Below, piece after piece: positions 11,242 through 58,696 of a stretch of DNA of 64,000 nt. Source of the DNA: Pancytospora philotis (Eukaryota > Microsporidia); the NCBI GenBank assembly GCA_023647555.1, contig JALRLY010000261.1:1-64000 (forward strand). The letters run 5' to 3'. A program made the translations under genes and the position numbers. Numbering within the stretch: the first letter of the stretch is position 1; every line of letters starts with the position of its first letter. The notes under the pieces are model-generated. The model was not told where the DNA came from and searched no databases. It worked only from the letters and a program-made list of their open reading frames with translations.

Positions 11242-11859
11242 ATGAGGGCAAATATTACAATAGCAGCATGCATTGCTCTCTGCAGTGCAACGAACAAGGC
11301 AGAAAATGGTCCAGAGGAGACTGTGCTGGCGCGTCCAAGCTATATTTCTGATGGTAACTTCGAGTATGATAGCGCCGGGTGTGCCGAGTTCTTCGAGATC
11401 CCGCGTGACAGGCCCGTGCGGATCTACTGCGACGGCGTCTATGACCTGTTCCATTACGGCCACATGCGGCAGCTGCACCAGGCGAAGAAGCTGTTTGAGA
11501 AAGTGTATCTTATTGTCGGTGTGCATGCGGATGATATAGTCCAAATGTATAAGCGACTGCCCATTCTTACGATGGAAGAGCGCTGCGAGAGCGTTGGATA
11601 CTTTAAGTACGTCGATAAGGTCGTGAAGGATGCTCCATGGTTTATAACGGAGGATTTTTTGATGAAGCATAAGATTGATTTTGTGGCCCATGATGAGGAG
11701 CCGTACCCCGCTGGTGATGGTGTTGATGATTTATACGGATGGTTAAAAAAGAGCGCTCGGTTTATACCCACACGAAGGACCAGCCGCATTTCCACTACCG
11801 AATTGATCAAAAGAGTGGTGGATAGAAGCAAGAAGGGAATTAAAGAAGGTACTAGCTGA
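11242..11859 (+). CDS. divergent phosphocholine cytidylyltransferase with signal-like N-terminus (tandem copy 1)
   Basis: The nucleotidyltransferase core is clear: PVRIYCDGVYDLFHYGH carries the HxGH motif, and DFVAHDEEPY and RTSRIST follow. Cytidylyltransferases of the Kennedy pathway make CDP-choline for phosphatidylcholine. This copy differs from its downstream neighbour in three ways. Its first 20 residues (MRANITIAACIALCSATNKA) look like a signal peptide. It lacks the C-terminal membrane-binding helix. It also departs from family consensus at catalytic-site positions: the RTxGIS glycine is arginine and the VRHC segment reads VGYF. It may be an enzyme moved to the secretory path or a pseudoenzyme. 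No AAAATTTT element precedes it, unlike copy 2. Confidence 0.85.
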   Translation: MRANITIAACIALCSATNKAENGPEETVLARPSYISDGNFEYDSAGCAEFFEIPRDRPVRIYCDGVYDLFHYGHMRQLHQAKKLFEKVYLIVGVHADDIVQMYKRLPILTMEERCESVGYFKYVDKVVKDAPWFITEDFLMKHKIDFVAHDEEPYPAGDGVDDLYGWLKKSARFIPTRRTSRISTTELIKRVVDRSKKGIKEGTS

Positions 11860-12097
11860 TGGGATCGCTCTATAATTCTAGCCAGTAAATTTCTCGTTAA
11901 TGTCTCTGTGACTGCTTCTTCGTTAAAAGCCTAGCAATATCAGCAATACCAGGCCATACTGTCACAGCAGCGATAAGTTATATGCATTTGCTGCATACGG
12001 GCCTATGTGTCAAATGAATCCGCTTTCTTATTTATTCTTTTTCCCGGTGCCTGCAAATGGGCCCGGCAGTTCTTTGCACAGACTAAAATTAGATCCT

Positions 12098-13009
12098 ATG
12101 ACGAGGAAAGGATCGGAAAGAAGAAAATCAATCAATTACAAACACAAAGTAGCCAAAAAATCCAAGGGAGCCAAGGCAAGAGAAGCGGCGCGGCGCAGCT
12201 CAGCAGCACGAGAAGGTTCTGCAGAGAGCGACTATGTGATGCTCGCCCCGTCCTACAGCGCCGCGGAGGGGTTCGAGCAGGAGGGGATGCGGAACGAGCA
12301 GCTCTACAGGATCCCGAAGCACCGGCCCGTGCGCATATACTGCGACGGTGTGTATGACCTCTTCCACTACGGCCATGCCAGACAGCTGGAGCAGGCCAAG
12401 CATCTCTTTCCCAGTGTGTATCTGCTCGTGGGCGTCACTTCTGATGAGATCACCGTTGCGCTCAAGGGGACAACGGTGATGTCGGGGCACGAGCGCTACG
12501 AGAGCGTGCGCCACTGCAAACACGTCGACGAGGTCGTGGAGGACGCACCGTGGATAATCACAGAGGACTTCCTTGCGGAGCACCAGATAGACCTCGTGGC
12601 CCACGACGACATCCCGTATTCTGGCGGCGGGCAGGACGACATCTATGCGCCGCTGAAGAGCGCGCACCGCTTCGTGGCCACGCAGCGGACCTCCGGGATC
12701 TCCACCTCGTCACTCATCACGCGGTTATTGCGCGACTACGACCTCTTTCTGCGGCGGCAGATTCTCCGCGGGATCTCGCACGAGGAGCTGAACATCTCCA
12801 GCTTCAAGGAGCGCCAGGTGAAGATTTCTGAGAAGCTGAACGTGGAGATCGACGGGCTCAAGAGCGAAATCAAGGAGATTGTGCGGTTCTGGGAGGAGCG
12901 CTCGAACAACTGGCTGTGCAGTTTTGTGAAAAAGTTCGAGAGCACGAAGATCGGGTGGATCGGGCGGCTCGTAGAATTCGTGAAGAAGCGCAAGCTTTTC
13001 AAGAACTGA
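12098..13009 (+). CDS. PCT1: CTP:phosphocholine cytidylyltransferase (tandem copy 2)
   Basis: Converts phosphocholine and CTP to CDP-choline, the regulated step of phosphatidylcholine synthesis. The basic N-terminal stretch (KHKVAKKSKGAKAREAARR) resembles the nuclear-localisation region of the family. The catalytic core has HYGH, the conserved lysine in VALKG, VAHDDIPY and an intact RTSGISTSS signature. The C-terminal 70 residues form an amphipathic helix (KIGWIGRLVEFVKKRK) like the lipid-sensing M domain. The ATG at 12098 follows AAAATTAG by a few bases; the longer upstream frame is hydrophobic and unlikely to be coding. It lies in tandem with the divergent copy 1. Confidence 0.93.
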   Translation: MTRKGSERRKSINYKHKVAKKSKGAKAREAARRSSAAREGSAESDYVMLAPSYSAAEGFEQEGMRNEQLYRIPKHRPVRIYCDGVYDLFHYGHARQLEQAKHLFPSVYLLVGVTSDEITVALKGTTVMSGHERYESVRHCKHVDEVVEDAPWIITEDFLAEHQIDLVAHDDIPYSGGGQDDIYAPLKSAHRFVATQRTSGISTSSLITRLLRDYDLFLRRQILRGISHEELNISSFKERQVKISEKLNVEIDGLKSEIKEIVRFWEERSNNWLCSFVKKFESTKIGWIGRLVEFVKKRKLFKN

Positions 13010-38615: not shown

Positions 38616-39515
38616 CTAGCAGGCGTACGAGCGGCGCTTTGAGCCGCGCCGCAGCTTCATCCCGCGCTTTGCGTTGTAATTCGACAGGCAGTCCCTAAGC
38701 GCGCTGTTCGTCTCGGAGTTGTCGAGGTCCGAGAAAGACGAGAGATCGGCGAAATCGCTGCTGGAACGCTTGCGGTATTTACGGCCTCGGAGTTGGCGCG
38801 AAAGAACGGTCAGTCCTGCGAGCGTATCGCTGACATCGGTCTCTGAGGGCTCGCACGGGTCGCTGCACTGCATATCAGACTCATTGCTGCTCTGCCGTCT
38901 GCGCTTCTTTTTATGGTGCTGCTGCTCGCGTCTCTGCGCTGATACGGGCTGGCCCAAGGGCGGCAGAGCGCTCGCGCGGCTGTTACGGTCGAGGTCCTGG
39001 TACATGCTGTGTGCGAGAGCGCACTGGATGAACTTGAGCTTTCTGTTCAGCTTGTCTTCGGTCGGGTTGCACTTCTTGGTCGCGCACATCCTGAACTTAT
39101 TGACCGCCTTGTTGGTGCAGTCCTCCTTGCGGAAGATCCCCGACTCGGCCGAGAGGCACGAGTCGTCGCGCATCAGAATGTACACGTCGGGCGCAGAGTA
39201 CACGAGCCGGATGCCCTGCCTGTCGGCCTCGCCCTTGGGGTTCAGCTCGTACCACTTCCTGAATATCCACCAGCCGCGCTCTGAGAAGGCGCTCTTGTCG
39301 TCCTCTGTTTTGAGTCTCTTCTCTGCCTGGTTCTCCAGATCCTCGAGCACGAACCGAATGGCATTGTCGGCCTCGACGACCGTCAGCTCGTCGGAGCCGC
39401 TGGCCTTCCCGATGAAGCGCTCGCTGTTAACGTCTTTGAAGTACACGCCCTTGCGCTCCTGGCAGCAGATAAATGCCGTGCAGGCTAGCGCAGCCAGCCA
39501 GCTTTTCCATCCCAT
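38616..39515 (-). CDS. secreted protein, beta-trefoil-like head and basic Ser-rich tail, 299 aa
   Basis: Signal peptide (MGWKSWLAALACTAFICC) followed by about 150 residues with repeating strand-turn-strand units and paired cysteines (VYFKDVNSERFIGKASGSDE; IRLVYSAPDVYILMRDDSCL; IFRKEDCTNKAVNKF), resembling ricin-B/beta-trefoil lectin folds. A long tail is polar, basic and serine-rich (HHKKKRRRQSSNESD, then RGRKYRKRSSSDFAD). It heads a run of three such genes. Ricin-B-like secreted proteins are known in microsporidia and are thought to bind host or spore glycans. The start at 39515 is the first true ATG; TTTAACG lies about 25 nt upstream. Confidence 0.68.
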   Translation of the reverse strand: MGWKSWLAALACTAFICCQERKGVYFKDVNSERFIGKASGSDELTVVEADNAIRFVLEDLENQAEKRLKTEDDKSAFSERGWWIFRKWYELNPKGEADRQGIRLVYSAPDVYILMRDDSCLSAESGIFRKEDCTNKAVNKFRMCATKKCNPTEDKLNRKLKFIQCALAHSMYQDLDRNSRASALPPLGQPVSAQRREQQHHKKKRRRQSSNESDMQCSDPCEPSETDVSDTLAGLTVLSRQLRGRKYRKRSSSDFADLSSFSDLDNSETNSALRDCLSNYNAKRGMKLRRGSKRRSYAC

Positions 39516-39818
39516 GCTGCTGTGTGGCACTCGCGTTAAATCCGGTGCATGTTTTAGGTGCTATTGGTCATGCGAATTATAATGCGCCAATGGTACTGTG
39601 TTTTAGCCTATAAAGTTGTTAGCCTTTTAAATTATTCGCGCCCGGGAATTGCAATAGATTATGCTATTGTGCAGATCATAATATAAAGCTCATTGCTGTG
39701 AGTAGCCAGCTAATAGGAGTAGCATTTGCCTTTACCCGCATACATGGTTTTATAGACGTTAAAAAGTCGAGCTCAATATGGTGGAAAATAGGCTAGTTAG
39801 ATGCAAATTAATAATTTA
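39516..39818. other. intergenic, no feature seen
   Basis: About 300 bases separating two secreted genes; AT-rich, nothing supported. Confidence 0.5.
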
Positions 39819-40469
39819 TTAGATAGATCTTCTGCGCCCGGATTCGTAAGGACTGTAGAGCGGCCTGCCATAAGGGCTCGAGCGAAGATCCACATATGGA
39901 TTCGAACGGAGATCTACTGCAAATGGATCGTAACGAGGATCGATAAATGGATTCAGAACATAGCCCGATTGGGTCACCGGCCAAGCCGCTTTGCGCTCCA
40001 TTTCTCTAAGTCTCCTCTGGTTTTCCTCAGAATGGCCGACGAAGCTATCGCTCGTCTTCGGCTCCTCGTACGAAATCTCAATCAGCGGCAGGAACGTGGT
40101 CGGCTGGGCGGTGCAGCTGCCGCGCACGAACGTCTTGGACGATTCGTTGAATTTCAGGCACTTCTCGCTGCTCACAAGGACCAGGAGATTGTCAGCCGTC
40201 AGAATGAGCCTGAAGTTCTGGTTGGACGCGCCGTGCATGCCGTATGAGATGAGATTGTCGCCGCCGCCCGACTGGTCGAGCACGAGGCCGCTCACCGGGT
40301 TCTGTATTATGAGAGACTGCAGGGGGTTGGTGCCGTCCAGTAGGGTGATGTCGGTCGCAGCGTCGAACGTGCCCAGCGTGACTTGCTGGCCGCCGTTGAT
40401 CACGAGATACTCCGCGCTCGCTGTGTCCTGCAAAAATAACGCGGACACGGTTGACAGGAACAGCAGCAT
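39819..40469 (-). CDS. secreted ricin-B-like (beta-trefoil) protein with Pro-Tyr-rich tail, 216 aa
   Basis: Signal peptide (MLLFLSTVSALFLQDTASA) followed by beta-trefoil-type units: GLVLDQSGGGDNLISYGMHG, NQNFRLILTADNLLVLVSSE, KCLKFNESSKTFVRGSC. The DQ and N-Q-F-R-L pattern matches ricin-B lectin repeats. The last 50 residues carry imperfect repeats around R-S-x-PY (RSNPYVDLRSSPYGRPLYSP) ending in arginines, probably disordered. Third of a run of related secreted genes. ATAAAAAG lies about 25 nt before the ATG. The stop is followed by TAAATTAT. Confidence 0.78.
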   Translation of the reverse strand: MLLFLSTVSALFLQDTASAEYLVINGGQQVTLGTFDAATDITLLDGTNPLQSLIIQNPVSGLVLDQSGGGDNLISYGMHGASNQNFRLILTADNLLVLVSSEKCLKFNESSKTFVRGSCTAQPTTFLPLIEISYEEPKTSDSFVGHSEENQRRLREMERKAAWPVTQSGYVLNPFIDPRYDPFAVDLRSNPYVDLRSSPYGRPLYSPYESGRRRSI

Positions 40470-40865
40470 GGCGCATCCTTGAGGGACTTTTTATCAGCTG
40501 ATGGTGCGTTTCATCTGCCTTGCCCCTATTGGACCGGCGCTGATGCGGCGGCTAAAACACGCATGTCGCGCATTCAGCGTGCTGTTTGAGACATGACTGG
40601 CTCTCTACGAGTGGCAGTTTGTGCTGGCAGTGTGTAGTTACCGAGGCAAGTACATGCGTTTTCAGGTGTTCTGTAAGTATATAAATTATAATCTGATGCT
40701 AGCTTATTTATACAAGTAGCTAAAGGTTAAACCATAATCTCTACTGGTAATTTAGAGATGCCTTTAGCCACGCAAATAAAAAAATTAGTCAAATTTACGA
40801 TCGTGCCAACTTCGAAATATGCATTATTCCTAATACTTTATACACTTCAAGCAACTAGATTTAAT
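40470..40865. other. intergenic, no gene seen
   Basis: About 395 bases between secreted genes. A GTAAGTATA lies at 40672 but no matching exon pair was found. Otherwise nothing supported. Confidence 0.5.
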
Positions 40866-41501
40866 TTATAAGACACCGATCGGGCGCAGAATTCTCAGCG
40901 TCTGCGCCAGATCTCCAGTGTTCTGCGTCTTATCCTGCCCCTTGAGCCGCACCAGATAGGGCTGCGTGATGTTCAGCCTGTCCGCCTCATCGACCTCGCG
41001 CAGATCCTTAGTGCCGATCGGGTCCACGTAGTTGACCATGCTCCCGCGCGGCGTCGTCTTGATGAGGTGCTGGGCCGTGTGGTAGTTCCTGCGCTCGTAG
41101 ATGGTCAGGTGGACCGTATCGGGACCGCTCGAACCCTCGCAGGGCGAAAGCTGCAGCTTGTGGTCAACGAGCAGCAGGCAGTTGTTTCCGTCCGTCACCG
41201 CCGCGTATCTCCCGTCCTTTTCCAAAGAAATCGCGAACGCGACGGGCTTGTCGGTGTTGGGCTGTCCGATTGTCAGCTGGTTGTTGTTGTTGCTGGTCAC
41301 AACCGGCTTGCCATCGCAGTAGATTCCGGTCTTGTGCGGCAGATTCGGATCGGCTACGCGTTTGCAAGAGCTAGCTTCAGCGATACTGTTCACCAGCTTA
41401 AAGCTGTTATTTCTGCCGAGCGCTAGGAAGCCGCCCTCCACGTTCTTGGTTTGGAACTTCAGATAGTCTCCCAGTACAGCGCCCAGTAGCAGCAGAAGCA
41501 T
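40866..41501 (-). CDS. secreted beta-trefoil-like protein, 211 aa
   Basis: Signal peptide (MLLLLLGAVLGDYL) followed by about 150 residues with trefoil-like units, for example EGGFLALGRNNSFKLVNSI, KDGRYAAVTDGNNCLLLVDH and KLQLSPCEGSSG, and paired cysteines near 40-60 and 105-120. The tail is basic and less ordered. It resembles the neighbouring gene at 39819 and is probably an old duplicate. ATG 41501 preferred over 41555 because the latter places 18 polar residues before the signal peptide. TTTAAAAATGG lies upstream. The stop is read within TAAATTAA. Confidence 0.72.
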   Translation of the reverse strand: MLLLLLGAVLGDYLKFQTKNVEGGFLALGRNNSFKLVNSIAEASSCKRVADPNLPHKTGIYCDGKPVVTSNNNNQLTIGQPNTDKPVAFAISLEKDGRYAAVTDGNNCLLLVDHKLQLSPCEGSSGPDTVHLTIYERRNYHTAQHLIKTTPRGSMVNYVDPIGTKDLREVDEADRLNITQPYLVRLKGQDKTQNTGDLAQTLRILRPIGVL

Positions 41502-42222
41502 GGCGCCTTGCCTGTCGCCATTTTTAAATCCGCGATATAAAACAGGGCCGACCAATGAAACGCCCGGCTTGCAAACCTCTGGCGCCGGCTGTCCTGCTGA
41601 AAAGCAAGCGTTTCACAATCAGCCCTGGTGCCTCAGGCACACAAGTGCATAAACTATTGCAGACAGCGCTGCAGAGCCACCGCCGCATTTATAATTGTCG
41701 GACTGCTGCACTCATCCCAACACCGTATTTGAAAGTGAAATGAGCTCGTTCACCATGCACGAATGTTTGCGCCCTGTGTGCAATTTTTTAGCGATCAATT
41801 TTGCATCAATGCGTGGCAGTGGTGACGTAACAAATCGCCCAGAACAAATGCGCGCTAAAAGAGGGTGGCACAAAAGCTGATGCAGTACTTACGATGAGGT
41901 CCCACCTCATGCAGGCAATATGAGGCAAGAATAGTTATTAAATACGCATTAAATACATATTGTGATAGCTCAAATGATCATCCAATTGCTTAAACACTAT
42001 CCTTTATCTCTTCTCACAACTAAGCTATCGCACCAGCTTTTTAAAATCCGGTTCAAACAGCGAGTTTTCTGCTCGCTGGCTCATTGCTCAGCCTTTGCGC
42101 CGTCTTAAGAATCTGCACATGAACCGATTATTTAACAAGCATGCAGAGCTTTTTCACCGTGGTTATTCACCCGCTGCGTTATAGCCGGTAGCTGCTCGTG
42201 CGTGTTCCCGCCTGAAATATTT
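41502..42222. other. long divergent intergenic region
   Basis: About 720 bases between the lectin-like cluster and Argonaute. A perfect 7-bp inverted repeat with a 3-base loop (ATGAGGT-CCC-ACCTCAT) lies at 41894-41910. No gene supported; the short frame at 41555-41743 lacks supporting features. Confidence 0.45.
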
Positions 42223-42247: not shown

Positions 42248-44683
42248 ATGGGAGACTACAATCGTGGAAGACCTAGAGATGGAGGAAGAGATGGCGGACG
42301 AGACGGCGGCCGCGGGCCCCCACCGAGACGGCCGCCTGTGCCGTCGGTGACCGCGCCCACGCCGTGCGATGTGACGGTGAATCTGTACAGGTACACCGGC
42401 CAGAGTCTGCTGCTGCATGCCTACGCCGTGACCTTTGAGCCGGAGGTGCACCGCAACGGCACGTTCAGCGTTTTTATGCGCATGGTGCGCGAGAAGGGCT
42501 TCAACGAGCAGTTTGCGTATGACGGCGTTGCTACGCTCGTGTCGCGCAACAAGTTCCCTGATACGGCGCTTGAGGTTGAGTTTGGCACCCGTGCGCAGCG
42601 CGTGCGTATCGAGTACAAGAACAGCTACGATATGGCGGACAACCACGTTGATGTTGCGCGCTTTGTGAATGCTGCTGAGGTGGTCACGCAGTTTTCGCAG
42701 CGCCAGGACTGCTATGTGGAGAAGGGCCGGATGGTGTCGCCCGTTGCGCGCCCTACGCCGCTGGATGGTGGACTGGATGTAATGGCTGGATTGACTGGTG
42801 TTCTTAAGATGACCAGCGAGTACGGGCTGTGCATGAATCTGGATCTGTGCTTTGGTGTGTTCCTGCGGCCTGTTGGGCTCATTGAGCTTGCTGAGGAGAT
42901 GCTTGAGAAGCGCAACCGCGGCTCTCGTTACGGCTCCAGCCAGGCGCGCCTGCCCGATGCTGGTGATTCTTTCTACGATACGATGGACCGCTGCCTGAAG
43001 AATGCGCGGCTCGAGACTACGCACCGCGACAAGCCGATGAGCTTCAAGGCCTCTGGGATTCTCAACAAGCCGGCCACTTCTGTGGAGTTTGAGATCGAGG
43101 GTGTTAAGATGACCGTTGCCGAGTACTTTGGTAAGACGTACAAGCCGCTGCGCTACCCGCAGCTGCCGCTCGTGGTGGTGAAGAAGCGCCAGATGGTGAT
43201 CTACATGCCTATGGAGGTGTGCCGTGTGGTGCCTATGCAGAAGTACGCGCACAAGCTCGACGAGGCTGGCACTGCGCAGATGATCCGCATCGCTGCGCAG
43301 CGCCCCGCCGAGCGCTTCGATCACATCGCTGAGAAGGCCAAGGAGCTCGCCGCGCTGAACAGCCCTGCGATGCAGCAGTTTGGAATGGCGTTCGATGGGC
43401 GGATGGTCAATTGCCGCGGTGTGATGCTGCCGCCGCCTGCCATTACCTTCAGCGATAACCGGACCGTGTCTGTCAACAACGGATCGTGGAATCTGGCTGG
43501 TGTGCGTGCTGTGCAGGGCGTTTCTATCGATGCCTGGAAGATTTTTGTGTTCCGCTCCTGTGCGCGCATTGGCAGCGATGCGATCCGTGCATTCTGCGAC
43601 GGCGCGAAGCGCTACGGCATTGAAATCCCGGCCAATCCTGAGATTGTAACGGTAAACACTGTGGGTGATTTCTACAGCGCACAGAAGGCGCGGTTCAACC
43701 TGGTTGTGCTGCCCGACAAGAGCGCGCAGCGCTACGAGGAGGTCAAGCGTATCGCTGAAACGTACAATGCATGCTACACGCAGTGCATCGTAGCATCCAA
43801 CGTGCCCAAGCTCACCAATCTTTCGTTCATGAGCAATATGTTCCTCAAGATTAACAGCAAGCTGGGCGGCCGGAACTGGTCCATCGATTCTAAGCTGTTC
43901 GCTGATAAGCCGACGATCCTCTTTGGTATCGATGTGTCCCATCCTGGCGTTGGTGATCTCGATAGCCCATCCATCGTTTCCGTTGTTGCTTCTCTCGACT
44001 ACTCCTTCATTACCTACAAGACCGTGATTGCTCAGCAGGAGCGCAGGCAGGAGATCACCGAGGATCTGCGCTCCATTGCCAAGGCGATGCTCAAGGCGCA
44101 CTACGGGTCCACGAAGATCAAGCCGGCGCGTATCATCGTGTTCAGGGACGGCGTGGGCGACTCTATGTTCGACGCTGTCTTCAGCACGGAGGTGGACGCC
44201 ATCAGACAGGCCTGCACGGACCTTTCTCCGTCCTACACGCCCGAGATCAACTTCATCGTTGCGCAGAAGCGCCATTCGATCCGCTTTGCCCACAAGAACA
44301 ACAACCTCGTTCCGGGCACGGTCGTGGACAGCCTGCGCGTGCCGACGGGCAACGCCACCGCGGGCGGGTCCGTTTCCTTCGCGAACTGCTCCTGCGACTT
44401 CTACATGGTCTCGCACCATGCGCTCCAGGGCACCGCACATCCGGTCCGCTATCTCCTGCTGCTCAACGAGTCCAACATGCCGAGCCAGTACCTGTACGAA
44501 GCCGTGTACGGGCTGTGCCACCTCTACATGCGTGCGACCAAGTCGGTCAGCGTGGTGCCGCCTATCTACTACGCGCATCTCGCGGCCGCCAGGGGCAAGT
44601 GCTATCTCGAGCGTAACGATGAGGGTGCGCTGAACATGCGCAGCTGCGATCAGAATATCAGCAAGAGCTTATACTACTTATAA
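42248..44683 (+). CDS. AGO1: Argonaute, slicer-competent
   Basis: Core protein of RNA interference. Order of regions in 811 residues: RGG-type N-terminus (GRPRDGGRDGGRDGGRG, 7-23), N domain, PAZ (about 230-345; YKPLRYPQLPLVVVKKRQM and MEVCRVVPMQKY near its end), MID (about 430-530; the 5'-phosphate pocket motif NACYTQCI), and PIWI (about 555-811). Catalytic residues of the DEDH tetrad are visible: Asp562 in GIDVSHPG, a glutamate of EITEDL (602-605), Asp634 in FRDGV, His777 in YAHL, so cleavage activity is likely. Only some microsporidia keep RNAi. Codons favour GGT, GCT and CGT more than neighbouring genes do, consistent with strong expression. The stop is followed by GTAAATC. Dicer is not in the window. 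Confidence 0.97.
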   Translation: MGDYNRGRPRDGGRDGGRDGGRGPPPRRPPVPSVTAPTPCDVTVNLYRYTGQSLLLHAYAVTFEPEVHRNGTFSVFMRMVREKGFNEQFAYDGVATLVSRNKFPDTALEVEFGTRAQRVRIEYKNSYDMADNHVDVARFVNAAEVVTQFSQRQDCYVEKGRMVSPVARPTPLDGGLDVMAGLTGVLKMTSEYGLCMNLDLCFGVFLRPVGLIELAEEMLEKRNRGSRYGSSQARLPDAGDSFYDTMDRCLKNARLETTHRDKPMSFKASGILNKPATSVEFEIEGVKMTVAEYFGKTYKPLRYPQLPLVVVKKRQMVIYMPMEVCRVVPMQKYAHKLDEAGTAQMIRIAAQRPAERFDHIAEKAKELAALNSPAMQQFGMAFDGRMVNCRGVMLPPPAITFSDNRTVSVNNGSWNLAGVRAVQGVSIDAWKIFVFRSCARIGSDAIRAFCDGAKRYGIEIPANPEIVTVNTVGDFYSAQKARFNLVVLPDKSAQRYEEVKRIAETYNACYTQCIVASNVPKLTNLSFMSNMFLKINSKLGGRNWSIDSKLFADKPTILFGIDVSHPGVGDLDSPSIVSVVASLDYSFITYKTVIAQQERRQEITEDLRSIAKAMLKAHYGSTKIKPARIIVFRDGVGDSMFDAVFSTEVDAIRQACTDLSPSYTPEINFIVAQKRHSIRFAHKNNNLVPGTVVDSLRVPTGNATAGGSVSFANCSCDFYMVSHHALQGTAHPVRYLLLLNESNMPSQYLYEAVYGLCHLYMRATKSVSVVPPIYYAHLAAARGKCYLERNDEGALNMRSCDQNISKSLYYL

Positions 44684-44914: not shown

Positions 44915-46216
44915 TTATTTGTATTCTGTGGCCTCGTCTGCCGCTCTCCTTCTATTTCCTTGCGTCAATATGGGGCTAGTCTCAGATAAATGCCAGGGCA
45001 TCTCCGCGGTTTCGCGATACGCTTCAAGGCCCTTCATCAAATAGTCAGCTTCTTCAGGATACTTTGTACGCAGCCTCTTGCAATCTTCAAGTAGGCGAGG
45101 AACAAGCCCATTTGGTAGCCGGCTCATCAGATCACTATCATCAACGATCTTTCTCAGACGAGTTCGCCCATCAGCCTCCGATACATCCAAATAGTAAGCA
45201 CTGAGCCCACGGAGCGCAGCCTCACTAGTCTTGATAATATGAGGCTTGCAGCGATAGTAATCAATGATGCGCCTGGTCACAGTAAGCGGATCAATCTCCA
45301 TTTCAGCAGCTACCTCGACAAACTTAGCCACGTTATGCACCAAGAGACAATGCAACAGTCGTTTATAATTGCACGCCTCCTTGGCTCGTGCCATATCGAC
45401 GCTTTTAATGCTGTCATACGCAGTCAGCAGACAGCGATACTCGTGATCTCTCTTCTCCTTATATAGATTTATAACGCGTACTATCAGCGGGATGATGAAC
45501 TCGTTACATATCTTCCCGCAGTCTCCGCTTTTCGCTGCACTGGCCAGGAGGTCAGACAGATCATCGTAGAAAGTATCATCATTGAACAAACTGCTTCTAC
45601 GGAGCAGATGTAAATACGCGTCCACCACCGTATCAGCAGTAAACACGCCCTTCATTTGTTCTCCGGGACGCACTGACACAGCCGCCGCGATTTTTTCGCG
45701 CAGCTGCTCTAAGACAGACGGCATCAACTCCTGCCACCTCTTTTGACTCTCCTCCTTACCAGCTTCAGAAATTTTGATAGGAAACATAAGGAATACTAGG
45801 TCTGTGCTCGCATTGTCAATAAGATCATAAAGCAACTCGTATCGCTTGTATGTCGGGTCTGCGGATATAAGCCTGTCAACTACCTCGTTGGGATTCTCGC
45901 AAGAAAGCATGTAGAGTATTAGATAATTTTGCTTCCGATTAGAATCTGCATCAACATCCAATCCTGGCATCATTCTGAAATTGGGATCGAATTTGTCACC
46001 TGCATTACCCTTCAAACAATCGTTAAGTAGCTTGCCGTACAAGACTTTAACAATACTGGTGAAAGCGGTAAACGGCTCGAAAATGCTCTTTTGGATGCTG
46101 TCCCGAGCAATAGCCGTGCTTGTCGGTTCTTTCGCACAGTCTTGGGCGGCTGCATTTACGGAAAGTAAAAGCGATAGAGCCGTTGCAGCTTTCAGTGTTA
46201 CGGCAGCGAGCAGCAT
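44915..46216 (-). CDS. secreted helical protein of unknown family, 433 aa (intact paralogue of 56514-58038)
   Basis: Signal peptide (MLLAAVTLKAATALSLLLSV) followed by a long helical protein of repeated short helices, without membrane segments. The whole length aligns with the broken gene at 56514-58038: shared blocks include DPTYKRYELLYDLID, VDAYLHLLRRSSLF, and LVPRLLEDCKRLRTKYPEE. The family is unknown to me; a HEAT-like solenoid is likely. GAAAAATTTTAC lies at 46236-46247 and CCCCC precedes the ATG. The stop is read within TAAATTTATTTA. Third positions are less GC-rich than in the housekeeping genes nearby. Confidence 0.82.
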   Translation of the reverse strand: MLLAAVTLKAATALSLLLSVNAAAQDCAKEPTSTAIARDSIQKSIFEPFTAFTSIVKVLYGKLLNDCLKGNAGDKFDPNFRMMPGLDVDADSNRKQNYLILYMLSCENPNEVVDRLISADPTYKRYELLYDLIDNASTDLVFLMFPIKISEAGKEESQKRWQELMPSVLEQLREKIAAAVSVRPGEQMKGVFTADTVVDAYLHLLRRSSLFNDDTFYDDLSDLLASAAKSGDCGKICNEFIIPLIVRVINLYKEKRDHEYRCLLTAYDSIKSVDMARAKEACNYKRLLHCLLVHNVAKFVEVAAEMEIDPLTVTRRIIDYYRCKPHIIKTSEAALRGLSAYYLDVSEADGRTRLRKIVDDSDLMSRLPNGLVPRLLEDCKRLRTKYPEEADYLMKGLEAYRETAEMPWHLSETSPILTQGNRRRAADEATEYK

Positions 46217-47777: not shown

Positions 47778-50525
47778 ATGGCAAGCGAGCTTTTGTCGGC
47801 ACCCAGCGAGGACCCCGCGGTCATCCCGTGCCCGCTCGGCGTTTTGAAGGCGCAGCTGCTGCAGGGCGAGGCGGTCGTGAAGGGCGCTGCCGATGCCAAC
47901 GAGTACAGGACGATCGTGCTCAGCAACGGAATCGCTGTGATGCTGGTGCGCAACCCGCGCTTCACCAAGGCGTGCGTCGCGCTGTCCGTAGGCGTGGGCA
48001 GCTACGACGATCCCGCCGACTTCCCCGGGCTCGCCCACTTCCTCGAGCACATGCTCTTCATGGGCACCGAGAAGTACCCGGGCGAGAACGAGTTCCAGGA
48101 CTTCCTCAACCGCCACAACGGCTCCACGAACGCGTACACCGCCGATGATTTCACCGTGTACTACGCCGACATAGACGCTGCGCAGCTGCGGGAGATGGCC
48201 GACATGTTTGCCAGCTTCTTCACCTGCCCGCTCTTCATCGAAGACTCCGTGACGCGCGAGATCAGCGCCGTGAACTCCGAGTTCCTCAACTCGATGAACG
48301 AGCCGTACTGGCGGCAGCACGCGGTCCTGAGCGAGTTCGTGCGGGCCGGCGACCAGCGCGGGCGCTTCAGCATGGGCAACACGGAGACGCTCAGCCACGA
48401 CAGCGTTTGGGAGCGCGTGAAGCAGTTCTGGCAGGACACGTACGCGGCCGGTCTAATGAAGGTGGTCGTTTGCGGCGACGGCGACTTCGACCAGCTCGCG
48501 GGCGTTGCGCAGATCTTCGAAGGTATCGAGAGTAAGCCCAAGCTGGATGGGGCCGCGGCTGAAAGGGCATTCTGCAACTTCGAGCCGCAGAGCCTCGGCA
48601 AGATCGTAAAGATGGAGCCGCTCGACGACGCGAAGGAGGTAACGATCGTGGTGAACCTGCCGCCGCTGCACAGCAGATGGCGCGAGAGCCCGCTCGAGCT
48701 GATACGCAATCTGCTGACGCTGGAGGAGGACGTCGGGCTGCCGGCGCAGCTCAAGAATGCGGGGCTTGCCTTCGGCCTCGACATGGCGTTCGAGCAGCAC
48801 TTCGATGCGACCAAGGTGCTTATCAGTGTGCAGCTGAGCAACGCCGGCTGTGCGGACTGCCGCAGCGTGCTCGATATGGTCCGCCAGTACATTGCAACGG
48901 CGATGCTCGAGGAGCCGGAGTACGAGCGGCTGAGGCGGATCTACGCCGAGGACTTCGATATGCGGCAGCAGGGCGACCCCATCGATTTTGCGCCCGAGCT
49001 GGCCGAGCGGATGCAGCTCTTCCCCGCCGCCCAGGTGCTGAGGCAGCCGTACACGTTCGATGCGTTCGACGGGGCGCTGGTTACGGAGCTGCTGGAGATG
49101 CTCGGCGACACGCGCAGGTGGCTGGTGGTGCTGGCGGACAACCGCGGCGACTTCACGCACGAGGAGCGGTTCTACGGCGTGCGGTACTGCCACCACGGCG
49201 AGTACCTTGTGCAGAGCGAGGCACTCCCGCGGGTAAATAGCGGGCAGGCCGAGAAGTGGGCGACCGACCGCTTTGTCGACAGTTTCAGCCCGCTGCCGAC
49301 GCCCGGGCGCTTTGTGCTCTCCGGGAGCCGCGGGAGCGGTGCGGTCGGCCTTGTGTTCGACGGGAAGCTCGGCGTGCCGCAGGCTGTCATCTACGTGCTC
49401 TTGGAGGCGCCGGAGTCCGCCGCGGCGGCCGTGGAGGTTGATCTCTACCTGCGCCTGACCGTGGACAGCTTTGTGGAGCGGCACGCGCGCAAGCTGGCCA
49501 ATTTGCACGTCACCGTTGGCGCCTCGCTCGGGCCCAACGGCGCGCAGGTCAAGTTCAGCGGCGTGCGCACGCACCTCGCTGAGCTGTGCTGCCTGTTCTG
49601 CAGCGAGCTCGGCAGCTCCGACATGCGCCGGCTGCAGCTCTTTAAGAAGCAGCTCGCGGACGAGTACAACTACGCCATCATGCAGGCGCCGTGGGACCGC
49701 CTCAGAAGCACGTTCACTACTGCGCGCCTGGGGCTGCCCAGCTACGAGGAGACGTTGGAGGCGCTCTCTGCCATGCAGGAGGGCGCACTGCCCAGCCCCA
49801 AGACTGCGCGGCTCCGCGTGCTGGCGGTCGGGAATATCGAGTTCAGCGATGTGGAGCGCGTGTACGATGCCGTGGAGGCCGCGATCGCTCTTGGCCAGCC
49901 GCTGGAGACCAGCGCCGAGGAGGGGCGGAGCAGCAGCGCGTTTGAGACGAAGGACCAGAACAACAACGGCGTGGCACTGTACTACGAGATTGCCAATATG
50001 CGCGGCTACAGCCCAGACGGGCAGAGCGGCGCCCCGGTGCTCAGGAGCCTCGCCATCGGCCATCTGTGGCTGCAGATCTGCCGCGACGAGTTCTTCAACC
50101 AGCTGCGGACGCTGGAGGAGCTCGGCTACTGCGTTTCCTCCAGCGTAGTCGCGGTCAGGAAGCAGCACTTCCTGGGCTTCTTTGTGCAGAGCGAGAAGTC
50201 TGTCGAGTTCCTCGAGGAGCGCATCGTGAGGTTCGTGGAGGACATGCGCGAGGAGCTGGAGGAGATGGACGACGAGACGTTCGAGGAGCATCGAAGCAGC
50301 GTCATCAGCTCCTTCAGGGAGCCCATTCTGAATCTACCTGACCTGAGCAGCACGGTCATGTGGCAGAGCAGACACCTGCAGATCGACCTTGAGCACGGCG
50401 AAAAGATGGCGGCGGTGGTCTCGCAGCTAACCAGGGAGGATCTGCTCGGTAGCAGCATTTTTGAGCACTACAGTAAGGTTTGCTCGAGCCGTGGTACCTC
50501 AGATGATACAAACATCGCTCAGTGA
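47778..50525 (+). CDS. insulinase-type (M16) metallopeptidase
   Basis: A zinc peptidase of the inverzincin class, with the inverted zinc motif H87-F-L-E90-H91 inside PGLAHFLEHMLFMGTEKYP and the distant ligand glutamate E168 in AVNSEF. The four-domain M16A layout is complete: a catalytic N-half, then an inactive C-half ending near LRTLEELGYCVSSSVVAV, at 915 residues close to the length of insulysin or Ste23/Axl1 (about 1000). It degrades short peptides or trims precursors. No signal peptide, so cytosolic. ATG at 47778 (context CCCCAATGG) is the first true ATG. Gene very GC-rich at third positions. Related peptidases are found in other microsporidia. Confidence 0.95.
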   Translation: MASELLSAPSEDPAVIPCPLGVLKAQLLQGEAVVKGAADANEYRTIVLSNGIAVMLVRNPRFTKACVALSVGVGSYDDPADFPGLAHFLEHMLFMGTEKYPGENEFQDFLNRHNGSTNAYTADDFTVYYADIDAAQLREMADMFASFFTCPLFIEDSVTREISAVNSEFLNSMNEPYWRQHAVLSEFVRAGDQRGRFSMGNTETLSHDSVWERVKQFWQDTYAAGLMKVVVCGDGDFDQLAGVAQIFEGIESKPKLDGAAAERAFCNFEPQSLGKIVKMEPLDDAKEVTIVVNLPPLHSRWRESPLELIRNLLTLEEDVGLPAQLKNAGLAFGLDMAFEQHFDATKVLISVQLSNAGCADCRSVLDMVRQYIATAMLEEPEYERLRRIYAEDFDMRQQGDPIDFAPELAERMQLFPAAQVLRQPYTFDAFDGALVTELLEMLGDTRRWLVVLADNRGDFTHEERFYGVRYCHHGEYLVQSEALPRVNSGQAEKWATDRFVDSFSPLPTPGRFVLSGSRGSGAVGLVFDGKLGVPQAVIYVLLEAPESAAAAVEVDLYLRLTVDSFVERHARKLANLHVTVGASLGPNGAQVKFSGVRTHLAELCCLFCSELGSSDMRRLQLFKKQLADEYNYAIMQAPWDRLRSTFTTARLGLPSYEETLEALSAMQEGALPSPKTARLRVLAVGNIEFSDVERVYDAVEAAIALGQPLETSAEEGRSSSAFETKDQNNNGVALYYEIANMRGYSPDGQSGAPVLRSLAIGHLWLQICRDEFFNQLRTLEELGYCVSSSVVAVRKQHFLGFFVQSEKSVEFLEERIVRFVEDMREELEEMDDETFEEHRSSVISSFREPILNLPDLSSTVMWQSRHLQIDLEHGEKMAAVVSQLTREDLLGSSIFEHYSKVCSSRGTSDDTNIAQ

Positions 50526-55588: not shown

Positions 55589-56050
55589 ATGGCCCGTACT
55601 GCACACAGCGCACGAAAGAGCACCGCGCCGCAACCCAAGGCCCGGATCGAGGCCGGCAGCGAGAGCGTCGCGAGCAAGAAGCCCACCAAGAGCCTCTCGG
55701 TGCGCACGCCCGTTATCAGCCAGCTGGAGAAGCCCAAGAAGATCGCGTCGTCGCAGGGCAAGCTGGTGCTCAAGGAGATCAAATACTACCAGAGCCACAT
55801 CGGCTTCCTGATTCCGAAGGCGCGGATCCTGGCGATGATCCGCAGCATCGTCAAGGAGGTGAACAAGAGCATGCCGCGCGACGACTTCCGCTTCACGTCC
55901 GCCTCGCTGAGCATCCTGCACGAGTGCATCGAGAACCACCTCGTGTGCCTGCTCGAGTACTCGTACATGGCGGCGCAGCACGCGAAGCGCGTCACGCTGT
56001 TCGCGTCCGACATACGGCTGGTGCAGAGAATAAAGAGCTTCGGTAAATAA
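55589..56050 (+). CDS. divergent histone H3, candidate centromeric CenH3
   Basis: The histone fold is clear: LVLKEIKYYQSHIGFLIPKA (alpha N), LAMIRSIVKEVN (alpha 1), TSASLSILHECIENHLVCLL (alpha 2) and KRVTLFASDIRLVQRIK (alpha 3). Compared with canonical H3, loop 1 carries about five extra residues (NKSMPRDDFRF), the RPGT segment before alpha N is missing, and most core residues differ. A longer loop 1 is a hallmark of CENP-A. Yet the tail begins ARTAHSARKST, a near copy of the canonical H3 tail with lysine 4 lost and lysine 9 with serine 10 kept. Total length 153 exceeds H3 (135). A highly diverged ordinary H3 is the alternative. Confidence 0.8.
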   Translation: MARTAHSARKSTAPQPKARIEAGSESVASKKPTKSLSVRTPVISQLEKPKKIASSQGKLVLKEIKYYQSHIGFLIPKARILAMIRSIVKEVNKSMPRDDFRFTSASLSILHECIENHLVCLLEYSYMAAQHAKRVTLFASDIRLVQRIKSFGK

Positions 56051-56513
56051 AGTAAATTGATGTTGAGCGTTGCTGGCGCAGTTTGCATGGCATGGATAAC
56101 AAGGGCGGCCTCAATGCAGTCTCATATTTGTGTTCTCAATTCGGAGAGTTTGCGCTGGCCCGCTTGCACCCTGCGCAGTAGATACTGAGCAGCAGGAACA
56201 TCACACGCGGAGACTGGCGCCAAGAATGCGTATGTATGCCCTGGCAGGTGAGCTGGGGATAACATCCAAGTAGGATAAAATGGTGTCGCAGACTTTGATT
56301 TGGGGCAGCATGGCACAGTGGCCAAGTACTATCGGGATAGGTAAGCGAGCTCAGTATTTTTTTAAACGTGAATGCTACACTTAATCGAGAGGCTGCGGGA
56401 GCGGCATGCGGTCTAGACTGGTCTTGGTGATTTGGTGTGCGAATGCGCAAAAGGGAAGCAGGAGCGGGCGCGAAAAATTTGAATGATCATAAAATCAAGC
56501 TTTTTATAGAAAT
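56051..56513. other. intergenic, no gene seen
   Basis: About 460 bases between the histone gene and the broken gene. AAAAATTTG at 56473-56480 has no gene downstream beyond eight codons. Nothing else is supported. Confidence 0.45.
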
Positions 56514-57012
56514 TTATTGAGTAGACTTGTTATTTTTTGACTTTAGTGCCGCAGTAAGACGTTCAGTTAGATATTTAGCATCATTAGGATGCTTTAAACC
56601 TCGTTTGGTGCAATCTTCTAGGAGGCGAACAGTAAGCTCGCGCGGTAGCTTGTTTATCAGACTGTCATCATTAGCGATCACTTTTAAACGGGTTTGTCCA
56701 TTAATATCTAATCCTTCCAAAAAATAATCACTGAGCAGACTGAGTCTAGCCTCCCCGGGCCCATTTTCAAATCCTCCAAGGAAAAAAATGATGCCCTCGG
56801 TCACTTTATACAGATCGACCTGCATTTCGGTTATTATTTCGATAAACTTAACCATATCCTCATGTACGAGGATGTACGACAGCCGTTCCCAATTAAAAAT
56901 CTTCATCGCTATTTCGCTATCGATATTTTTGATGCTGTCACGCATAATCTGCGTGCAGCGGAGCGCGTGGTGAGGGTTATCCTCAATCCAAAGTTCTATC
57001 AAATCAGCCATT

Positions 57013-57019
57013 AAGGGCT
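57013..57019. repeat. target-site duplication, copy 1
   Basis: AAGGGCT, identical to 57275-57281 across the insertion. Confidence 0.75.
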
Positions 57020-57274
57020 GTCGTACTCCGGCTCGCCCTCGACGACCTGTGATCTAAATACAGTGATCTAATTACATTATCATATATCACCATCAGAATG
57101 ATATATTAGCTTTACATTAAGTTTGAAAGTGCAATTCAAACTATAAATATAGTCGAAGAGAGGACAACAAGGATGATGAGGAGAGAGAGTGCCCAAGAGA
57201 GGGGCAGAACAGGACATGACAATAAATCGTTTACTAAGGGGTTTGTGCGGTCGGGGCCCCGAGAGGGGTACGTC
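57020..57274. mobile_element. 255-bp MITE-like insertion
   Basis: Flanked by 7-bp direct repeats (AAGGGCT at 57013-57019 and 57275-57281). The ends are imperfect inverted repeats: GTCGTACTCCGGCTCG at one end against GACGTACCCCTCTCGG at the other. Ends are GC-rich, the centre AT-rich with a GTTTGAA/TTCAAAC hairpin (57120-57140). No transposase frame, so it is non-autonomous. A 7-8 bp duplication would suit P, hAT or Merlin-type families; Merlin elements are known from microsporidia. It might alternatively be an unusual intron, but no consensus splice sites are seen. Confidence 0.75.
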
Positions 57275-57281
57275 AAGGGCT
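57275..57281. repeat. target-site duplication, copy 2
   Basis: AAGGGCT, identical to 57013-57019. Confidence 0.75.
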
Positions 57282-58038
57282 TTATAAACTGATCAATTGT
57301 CTCTTCAAGGTTTCTACTGCTCAATGCGTCAGCCATAAGGTCTGAAAAATCATCGTAGAAATATTCACTGTGCAAATCGTATCTACGGAGTAAATGTAAA
57401 TATGCGTCCACTCTCGCATTAGCATTAAATCTCTTATTGGCGGTGTATAAGCTTTTCAAATATTCGCCGGTACGCACTGACACAGCCTCTGTGATTTTCC
57501 CGCGCAGCAGCTCTAGCATCCGCGGTTTAAACTCTCTCCAATCACGTACGCCTCTTTTTAGTCCAACCAAAGTAAAGTTGAATGAGAACTTGCCGGATAA
57601 TTCTTTTAAGTACATTGCATCTAAGTCCACTCCGTTGACGAGATCGAGAAGCACCTCGTATCTCTTATGTGTCGGGTTTGCCAATATAAGCCTGTCAACT
57701 GCTCCATCGGGATCTTCACATGAAAGCAGATAGAGCGTTACGAACATTTTCTTTGAATCTATGTCATCCTTAATCTTAAATCCAGGCATTAAAACGGTCC
57801 CTGAATGGAATCTGTCGCGAGCACAGCCGTTAATACAATCTTCAAGTAGCTCACTATAAAGCGTATTAATATTCCCAATGAAAACACGAGAGCACAATCC
57901 CAAAATACTCTCTTTGACACTGTCACGAGTGATAGCCGCATCTTCTGATTCTGTACTGTTGTCTAGTGCGGCGGCGCGTATAGCAAGCAACATCGATAAA
58001 GTTGTTGCAGCTCTCGGTATAACGGCAGCGAGCAGCAT

Positions 58039-58696
58039 TACAGGGGGTACGATTTTGGATAATTTTATTGAGTGATAGAGACTTCAGCGACAATAAAATT
58101 TTACACCGTAGCGCTTCTCATATTGAAAACAAACGTTTTCCTTTATATGCTGGCCGCTCCTGCGTATTTCACAGTGCATTTCATGGCTGTGGCACTCTAG
58201 TCCTACGCGCATGTACTCATGGCCCGCCCCGGCCTTTTGTGCTCATCGCGACTTTTCCAAAGCATGACGAGCCTTCCGGTACGTGGCTGTTCATGATGCT
58301 TTTGTGCAGGCTCTTCTTCCTGGAAGACGGATGCATGGTGTGGAACTGGCAAAAGCATCCAAATAGTCTCTGTGCGTTGTTAGAGGGAATCTTCTCTACA
58401 TCGCTGAACAGATTGGATGGATAGGAGACCTCCATGAACTAGTTTAAGTCAAGCTGGGGGTGGCTGCAGTCGATCTAGGCATGTAGATATCAATATTAAG
58501 ATCTGGCGATGCTCTTTTCTGTAACTTTGTCCAGGTTAACATGTTTAATTGCAAGGGGACTGGGTTTATTGCTAAATTGAAGCCTACTTCGCCTAGTGTC
58601 CCATGTAGCTCTTTTTCAAAAAACGATGCGCATCTAAGGCATTTCTGTAAAAGGCTGCTCGTGGATGTCCGCTTGGATCATTGTTTGCCTGACTAG
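58039..58696. other. divergent intergenic region, no gene seen
   Basis: About 660 bases. A plus-strand frame (58068-58424) has no ATG at its head and no promoter element, and is not annotated. An AAAATTATCC stretch near 58060 is a weak form of the promoter element of the broken gene. Confidence 0.45.

What the first reader, a model, noticed from the sequence alone, without database searches (positions are those of the whole stretch)
57013..57281. MITE-like element with target-site duplication splits a secreted-family gene
A 255-bp segment with imperfect terminal inverted repeats and a perfect 7-bp flanking duplication sits inside a gene whose intact paralogue lies 12 kb away (44915-46216). 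Discounting element plus one duplication (262 bp) puts the two halves in one frame exactly, which is hard to get by chance. It appears to be a non-autonomous DNA transposon in a compact genome, and the host gene has no other lesions.
Basis: partly seen in the sequence, partly recalled or inferred. Interest (0 to 1): 0.8.

Follow-up and report, generated by a model that had tools for sequence, protein, structure and literature searches.

The report
Lone insertion splitting a parasite gene
A 255-base piece of DNA was inserted into one gene of a protein family of a nematode-infecting microsporidian and left a 7-base footprint; it looks like a small transposon, but neither a second copy nor a matching transposase turned up, so it is a fairly ordinary broken gene copy.

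Summary
The genome matches Pancytospora philotis. A 255-bp insert (57020-57274) lies between perfect copies of AAGGGCT inside one member of a paralogous family. The empty site is real: 14 of 14 aligned paralogues, of 31 family matches, run uninterrupted through the junction. The ends match as inverted repeats over 10 bp only (8 of 10; 0.07-0.25% by chance). Against a MITE: no other copy in the 3.68-Mb assembly, no other facing pair of the end motif within 6 kb, and the two Merlin elements with clear ends have different ends. P and Dada transposases were not searched, and the hAT search had no working control. No GT-AG pair near the edges fits the frame. Best reading: one insertion of a solitary non-autonomous element of unknown superfamily; captured filler DNA is the main rival. 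Unexpectedly, the insert read in frame gives the upstream half a strongly hydrophobic C-terminus (reached by 78 of 30,000 random entry points and 0 of 3000 shuffles); a membrane-anchored product is possible but untested.

The parts
57020..57274 (.). 255-bp inserted segment, single copy; two 8-bp hairpins, a 2 x 14-bp imperfect tandem, and a stretch 74% purine on the + strand (57146-57240)
57013..57019 (.). target-site duplication copy 1, AAGGGCT
57275..57281 (.). target-site duplication copy 2, AAGGGCT
57020..57029 (+). left terminal inverted repeat GTCGTACTCC (8 of 10 with the right one)
57265..57274 (-). right terminal inverted repeat GACGTACCCC
57136..58038 (-). upstream half of the split family gene: 255 codons homologous to paralogues, then 45 codons read out of the insert ending in a hydrophobic stretch
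56514..57011 (-). downstream half of the split gene, 165-aa ORF with its own ATG
44915..46216 (-). intact paralogue, 433 aa
56397..56518 (+). truncated 3' end of a dispersed repeat (retroelement-like), overlapping the stop codon of the split gene

Best explanation
A short non-autonomous DNA element of unclassified superfamily, solitary in this assembly, inserted once into a member of a largely tandem gene family of Pancytospora philotis whose N-termini look like signal peptides (by eye). A transposase-type cut staggered by 7 bp gave the flanking duplication. Shown: the insert, the 7-bp duplication, the empty site in paralogues, the 8-of-10 inverted ends, the two open halves. Inferred: that a transposase made the cut, that the event is recent, and that the gene no longer makes its full-length product.
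For: Perfect 7-bp duplication at a junction that homology fixes independently; inverted ends beyond chance at that junction (0.07-0.25%); both halves still open; IS1595/Merlin-type transposase matches (6) and reverse-transcriptase matches (23, of them 21 over the curated cut-off) in the genome, one Merlin element with complete-looking ends and an 8-bp duplication; Nosema MITEs of unassigned superfamily are reported with TSDs of 4-7 bp and TIRs of 5-28 bp (PMC4405373, passages).
Against: Single copy; no partner with matching ends found; inverted repeat only 10 bp and imperfect, with part of it also present upstream of family genes; duplication plus such ends occurs at 3 other places in the window; no long inverted-repeat fold: 49 of 200 DNA shuffles and 11 of 200 RNA shuffles fold at least as well.
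Confidence: 0.6

Rival explanations
1. Non-transposon insertion: a DNA fragment (own, host or viral) captured while a staggered double-strand break was filled in and joined, which also leaves a short flanking duplication.
For: Single copy with no relative; uneven composition along the insert; the short inverted ends could be chance.
Against: No donor in the own genome at E<=10, and only chance-level hits (best E 0.76) with word size 7 in the loci held, at most 336 kb with overlaps; inverted ends at a fixed junction are unlikely by chance. Host and viral DNA were not searched.
Confidence: 0.22
2. Truncated retroelement or SINE: target-primed insertion, giving a duplication of variable length.
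For: The genome has 23 reverse-transcriptase matches and dispersed 3' ends, one of them at 56397-56518.
Against: The insert matches no other place in the assembly, so no retroelement 3' end there; no A-tail at either end; no Rfam match up to E 5, no tRNA in the window. Pol III promoter boxes were not scanned.
Confidence: 0.07
3. Intron or intron-like (introner) element removed from the mRNA.
For: The 262-b unit, if spliced, would leave a continuous frame; some introners derive from transposons with duplications (recalled).
Against: Of 2 GT sites (57250-57310) and 7 AG sites (56985-57060) on the minus strand no pair has a length congruent with 262 modulo 3; none of the 8 possible exact excisions begins with GT and ends with AG (read by eye); 14 of 14 aligned paralogues lack it.
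Confidence: 0.03
4. Assembly artefact or minor haplotype.
For: Only one assembly, no reads at hand; the protein database lists the window's own proteins on a contig of 73,167 b, while C31 here has 67,318 b, which I did not resolve.
Against: A clean 7-bp duplication and homology-exact edges are not typical of misjoins; the insert is not a repeat.
Confidence: 0.05

Closest known systems
MITEs of Nosema bombycis, N. antheraeae and N. ceranae, class 'Others' (PMC4405373, passages)
   Same: Microsporidian host, short insert, TSD of 7 bp within the reported 4-7 bp, TIR of 10 bp within the reported 5-28 bp.
   Different: That study discarded families with fewer than three members and allowed fewer than 2 TIR mismatches; here one copy and 2 mismatches. 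Sequence similarity was not tested: their sequences were not at hand.
Merlin / IS1595-type elements of the same genome (L067, L068)
   Same: DNA transposons in the same genome; L068 has facing repeats starting GGTAAGACTTC, span 1020 b, flanked by AAATTTTG on both sides (8 bp).
   Different: Terminal repeats unrelated in sequence and 42-51 bp long; duplication of 8 bp (L068), not 7.
P-superfamily element Galileo and Dada (PMC2775673, PMC3706591, passages; P membership of Galileo recalled)
   Same: Duplication length: Galileo 7 bp, Dada 6-7 bp.
   Different: Galileo has the consensus target GTAGTAC and long TIRs; Dada lies in small-RNA genes, and its U1 and U6 families have sub-terminal instead of terminal inverted repeats. 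P and Dada transposases were not searched for here.

Membership tests
MITE | Short non-coding segment with target-site duplication | tested here: met
   255 bp, AAGGGCT duplicated; empty site in 14 of 14 aligned paralogues
MITE | Terminal inverted repeats | tested here: inconclusive
   10 bp, 8 of 10; 0.07-0.25% by chance at a fixed junction, but 3 other cases of duplication plus such ends in the window
MITE | Multiple similar copies in the genome | tested here: not met
   Only itself at E<=10; ends with up to 3 mismatches: itself plus one 3-mismatch hit. Unassembled repeats cannot be seen
MITE | Autonomous partner whose transposase recognises the same ends | tested here: inconclusive
   Of 6 Merlin-type loci 2 have clear ends, both different; MULE none; hAT none but control silent. 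P, Dada, piggyBac and mariner not tested
Merlin-derived element | Terminal repeats like those of the genome's Merlin elements and 8-bp duplication | tested here: not met
   (2 of 6 loci could be compared)
Spliceosomal intron | GT-AG edges that preserve the frame | tested here: not met
   RNA data not available
5'-truncated non-LTR retroelement / SINE | Match to a retroelement 3' end, or to a known Pol III RNA | tested here: not met

The most novel reading that the evidence does not exclude
The insertion did not simply kill the gene but re-made it: read in frame, it gives the upstream half a 45-residue tail ending in a strongly hydrophobic stretch directly before the stop (19-residue window at 2.64 on the Kyte-Doolittle scale), so that a secreted family member would become membrane- or GPI-anchored, while the downstream half restarts at its own ATG. 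A transposon-like insert would then have supplied an anchor exon in one step.
Probability: 0.06. Interest if true: 0.55.

Novelty: new member of a known kind. Interest (0 to 1): 0.22.

Why it matters
It is an example of how inserted DNA edits the amplified gene families of microsporidia: this insertion and a truncated retroelement-like copy at the 3' end sit in one family member. If the element has relatives in other strains or in P. epiphaga it would define a small transposon family with 7-bp duplications; if not, it is an isolated event of little general weight.

Tried and rejected
Other copies: BLAST of the 269-b segment at E<=0.001 and of 57021-57275 (one base off the exact edges) at E<=10 in the own genome; both ends as patterns with up to 3 mismatches; the 10-b end motif; word-7 blastn and tblastx on the loci held (at most 336 kb, overlaps counted, six loci holding the insert or its flanks left out). 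Nothing above chance; best blastn hits E 0.76 (one is 14 identical bases at window 48912-48925), best tblastx E 0.49. RNA structure, Rfam, tRNA: nothing. An origin of the hydrophobic tail from another gene: the 45-aa piece matches only itself in the own genome at E<=10. Pfam for the family: no model over its cut-off for 3 of 3 proteins. Family relatives in the protein database: 4, 4 and 1 proteins found, all own or named P. philotis; only the 7996 best candidates were scored. The first TIR test used edges one base off and was not significant (44% of random windows as good for local matches); one search replaced it with the exact edges. Paper searches without use: (0 papers).

Full report
What the window is. 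The window is bases 1-64000 of contig C31 (67,318 b) of a 3.68-Mb genome in 83 contigs. Relatives of the finding's paralogue are named as Pancytospora philotis proteins on contigs of 51,387 and 51,650 b, the lengths of C79 and C80 here. The database puts the window's own proteins on a contig of 73,167 b; I did not resolve that difference. P. philotis is a microsporidian of the gut of the nematode Oscheius tipulae (PMC5179134, passages). Its genome was reported in PMC10393165 (abstract, outline and 12 passages), which describes large gene families rich in signal peptides or transmembrane segments in these species; whether this family is one of those listed there was not checked. In the main text of that paper the word starts 'transpos' and 'intron' occur 0 times. 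A search for papers holding 'Pancytospora' and 'transpos' listed one, on another microsporidian (listing only).

The split gene. On the minus strand an ORF of 300 codons (57136-58038) and one of 165 codons (56514-57011) match consecutive parts of the 433-aa paralogue at 44915-46216: 43% identity to residues 1-244 and 37% to residues 258-399. The own-genome search with the paralogue gives 31 matches at E<=1, 18 of them on C79 and C80, the paralogue itself and the two halves included in the 31. Fourteen members, the paralogue among them, were aligned with the two halves as separate rows. Left out were 15 matches: L043 and L050 (start not parsed), a C-terminal fragment (C41) and 12 remote ones. 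All 14 run without interruption through the junction, where 13 of 14 have F and 9 of 14 have M in a short motif of the form F-x-x-P-L-M. The aligner placed the first two residues of the downstream half at the far end of the alignment; I read that place by eye. The downstream half has one residue more than most members shortly after the junction, as has C81_4672. By arithmetic codon 256 of the upstream frame begins at 57273 and the downstream ATG at 57011, 262 b lower, so the frames agree.

The insert. Its edges are exact: AAGGGCT at 57013-57019 and 57275-57281, 255 b between. The first 10 b and the reverse complement of the last 10 b agree at 8 positions, and not beyond. Among 100,000 random 255-b segments of the window 0.248% reach that score, among 100,000 shuffles of the ends 0.245%, and 8 of 10 occurs at 0.072% of positions. 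This is suggestive at a junction fixed by homology. By itself it would not be: of 3461 pairs of 7-b direct repeats 100-600 b apart in the window, 4 have such ends, this one included; the control with direct instead of inverted ends gave 0. Also, the CGTACCCC of the right end recurs just upstream of the start codon of this same gene and of the C79 paralogue. The DNA strand does not fold better than shuffles (z -0.71; 49 of 200 as good), the minus-strand RNA slightly (z -1.71; 11 of 200). GC is 0.44, like the two halves of the gene (0.41 and 0.43), against 0.54 for the window.

Copies and partners. The insert matches only itself in the assembly at E<=10. The right end (18 b, up to 3 mismatches) has itself and one 3-mismatch hit, reversed control 0; the left end (25 b, up to 3 mismatches) only itself, control 0. 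The degenerate 10-b motif has 47 matches against 56 for the control; the insert is the only place where two of them face each other within 6 kb, the next such pair being 6.05 kb apart on C10 and not examined. Transposases: IS1595/Merlin family 6 matches, MULE none with a working control, hAT none with a silent control, so uninformative. Of the six Merlin loci, L067 and L068 have clear facing repeats (aligned over 51 and 42 b), L069 to L071 none longer than 11 b, and L072 could not be judged because of masked bases. L068's repeats start GGTAAGACTTC, span 1020 b and are flanked by AAATTTTG on both sides. Those of L067 start CTAATAGGTGGTC. Neither resembles the insert's ends. Repeats often break assemblies, so copies in unassembled parts remain possible.

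Alternatives. A canonical intron is unlikely: of 2 GT and 7 AG sites near the edges no pair has a length congruent with 262 modulo 3. No retroelement or known RNA origin was found. Captured filler DNA is the main rival because little but the short inverted ends separates it from a transposon.

An unexpected reading. The upstream ORF continues 45 codons into the insert and ends in WALSLLIILVVLSSTIFIV before the stop, mean hydropathy 2.64. Of 30,000 random entry points in the window, coding or not, 78 (0.26%) reach 2.6 before a stop or within 85 codons; 40 of 10,193 do among tails of 19-70 aa; and 0 of 3000 dinucleotide shuffles of the insert read in the same frame. The test and its threshold were chosen after seeing the sequence, so I treat it as a lead. 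The tail matches nothing else in the genome at E<=10. No signal-peptide, membrane or GPI predictor was at hand.

The 3' end. Bases 56397-56518 are the 3' end of a dispersed repeat, found also 40 to 463 b from the ends of contigs C61, C64, C53, C17 and C81, and 1.9 kb from an end of C9. Six of the 7 copies, the window's included, have AAATTTATT and then diverge, except that C9 and the window share GAGTA; the C17 copy stops matching at AAATTTA. The ORF ending there in L007 reads like the C-terminus of a non-LTR retroelement with a restriction-like endonuclease (recalled resemblance; Pfam gave nothing). The stop codon of the split gene lies in this repeat.

Verdict. Observation confirmed. A transposon-like insertion is the best reading (0.6). 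MITE membership is not established: the copy-number criterion was tested and not met. The finding is of modest interest.

Noticed in passing
56397-56518: Truncated copy of the 3' end of a dispersed retroelement-like repeat that overlaps the stop codon of the split gene; five other copies lie within 0.5 kb of contig ends, so the repeat probably breaks the assembly.
   Followed up: partly
58044-58051 (minus strand) and C79:13203-13212: CGTACCCC, the core of the insert's right end, also lies a few bases upstream of the start codon of the split gene and of a C79 paralogue; perhaps a common upstream motif of the family.
   Followed up: no
L068 1024-2043: Complete-looking Merlin/IS1595-type element: facing repeats aligned over 42 b and an 8-bp flanking duplication AAATTTTG.
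   Followed up: partly
L051 1507-2313 (C80): Another family member: homology ends about 18 residues after the same junction and the ORF about 38 after it, with an unrelated tail; no trace of the missing half in the 3.8-kb locus.
   Followed up: partly
L053 (C41:204302-204478): A lone fragment 68% identical to residues 378-433 of the intact paralogue, with a stop inside.
   Followed up: no
11242-11859 and 12005-13009: Two adjacent cytidylyltransferase-like genes (CTP_transf_like).
   Followed up: no
42248-44683: Argonaute gene with PAZ and Piwi domains, in line with the RNAi proteins reported for Pancytospora (PMC10393165, passage).
   Followed up: no
55589-56050: Core histone gene (Pfam Histone); looks like a divergent H3 by eye.
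   Followed up: no
38616-41555: Run of three small ORFs with signal-peptide-like starts by eye; the one tested has a ricin-B lectin match below the Pfam cut-off.
   Followed up: no
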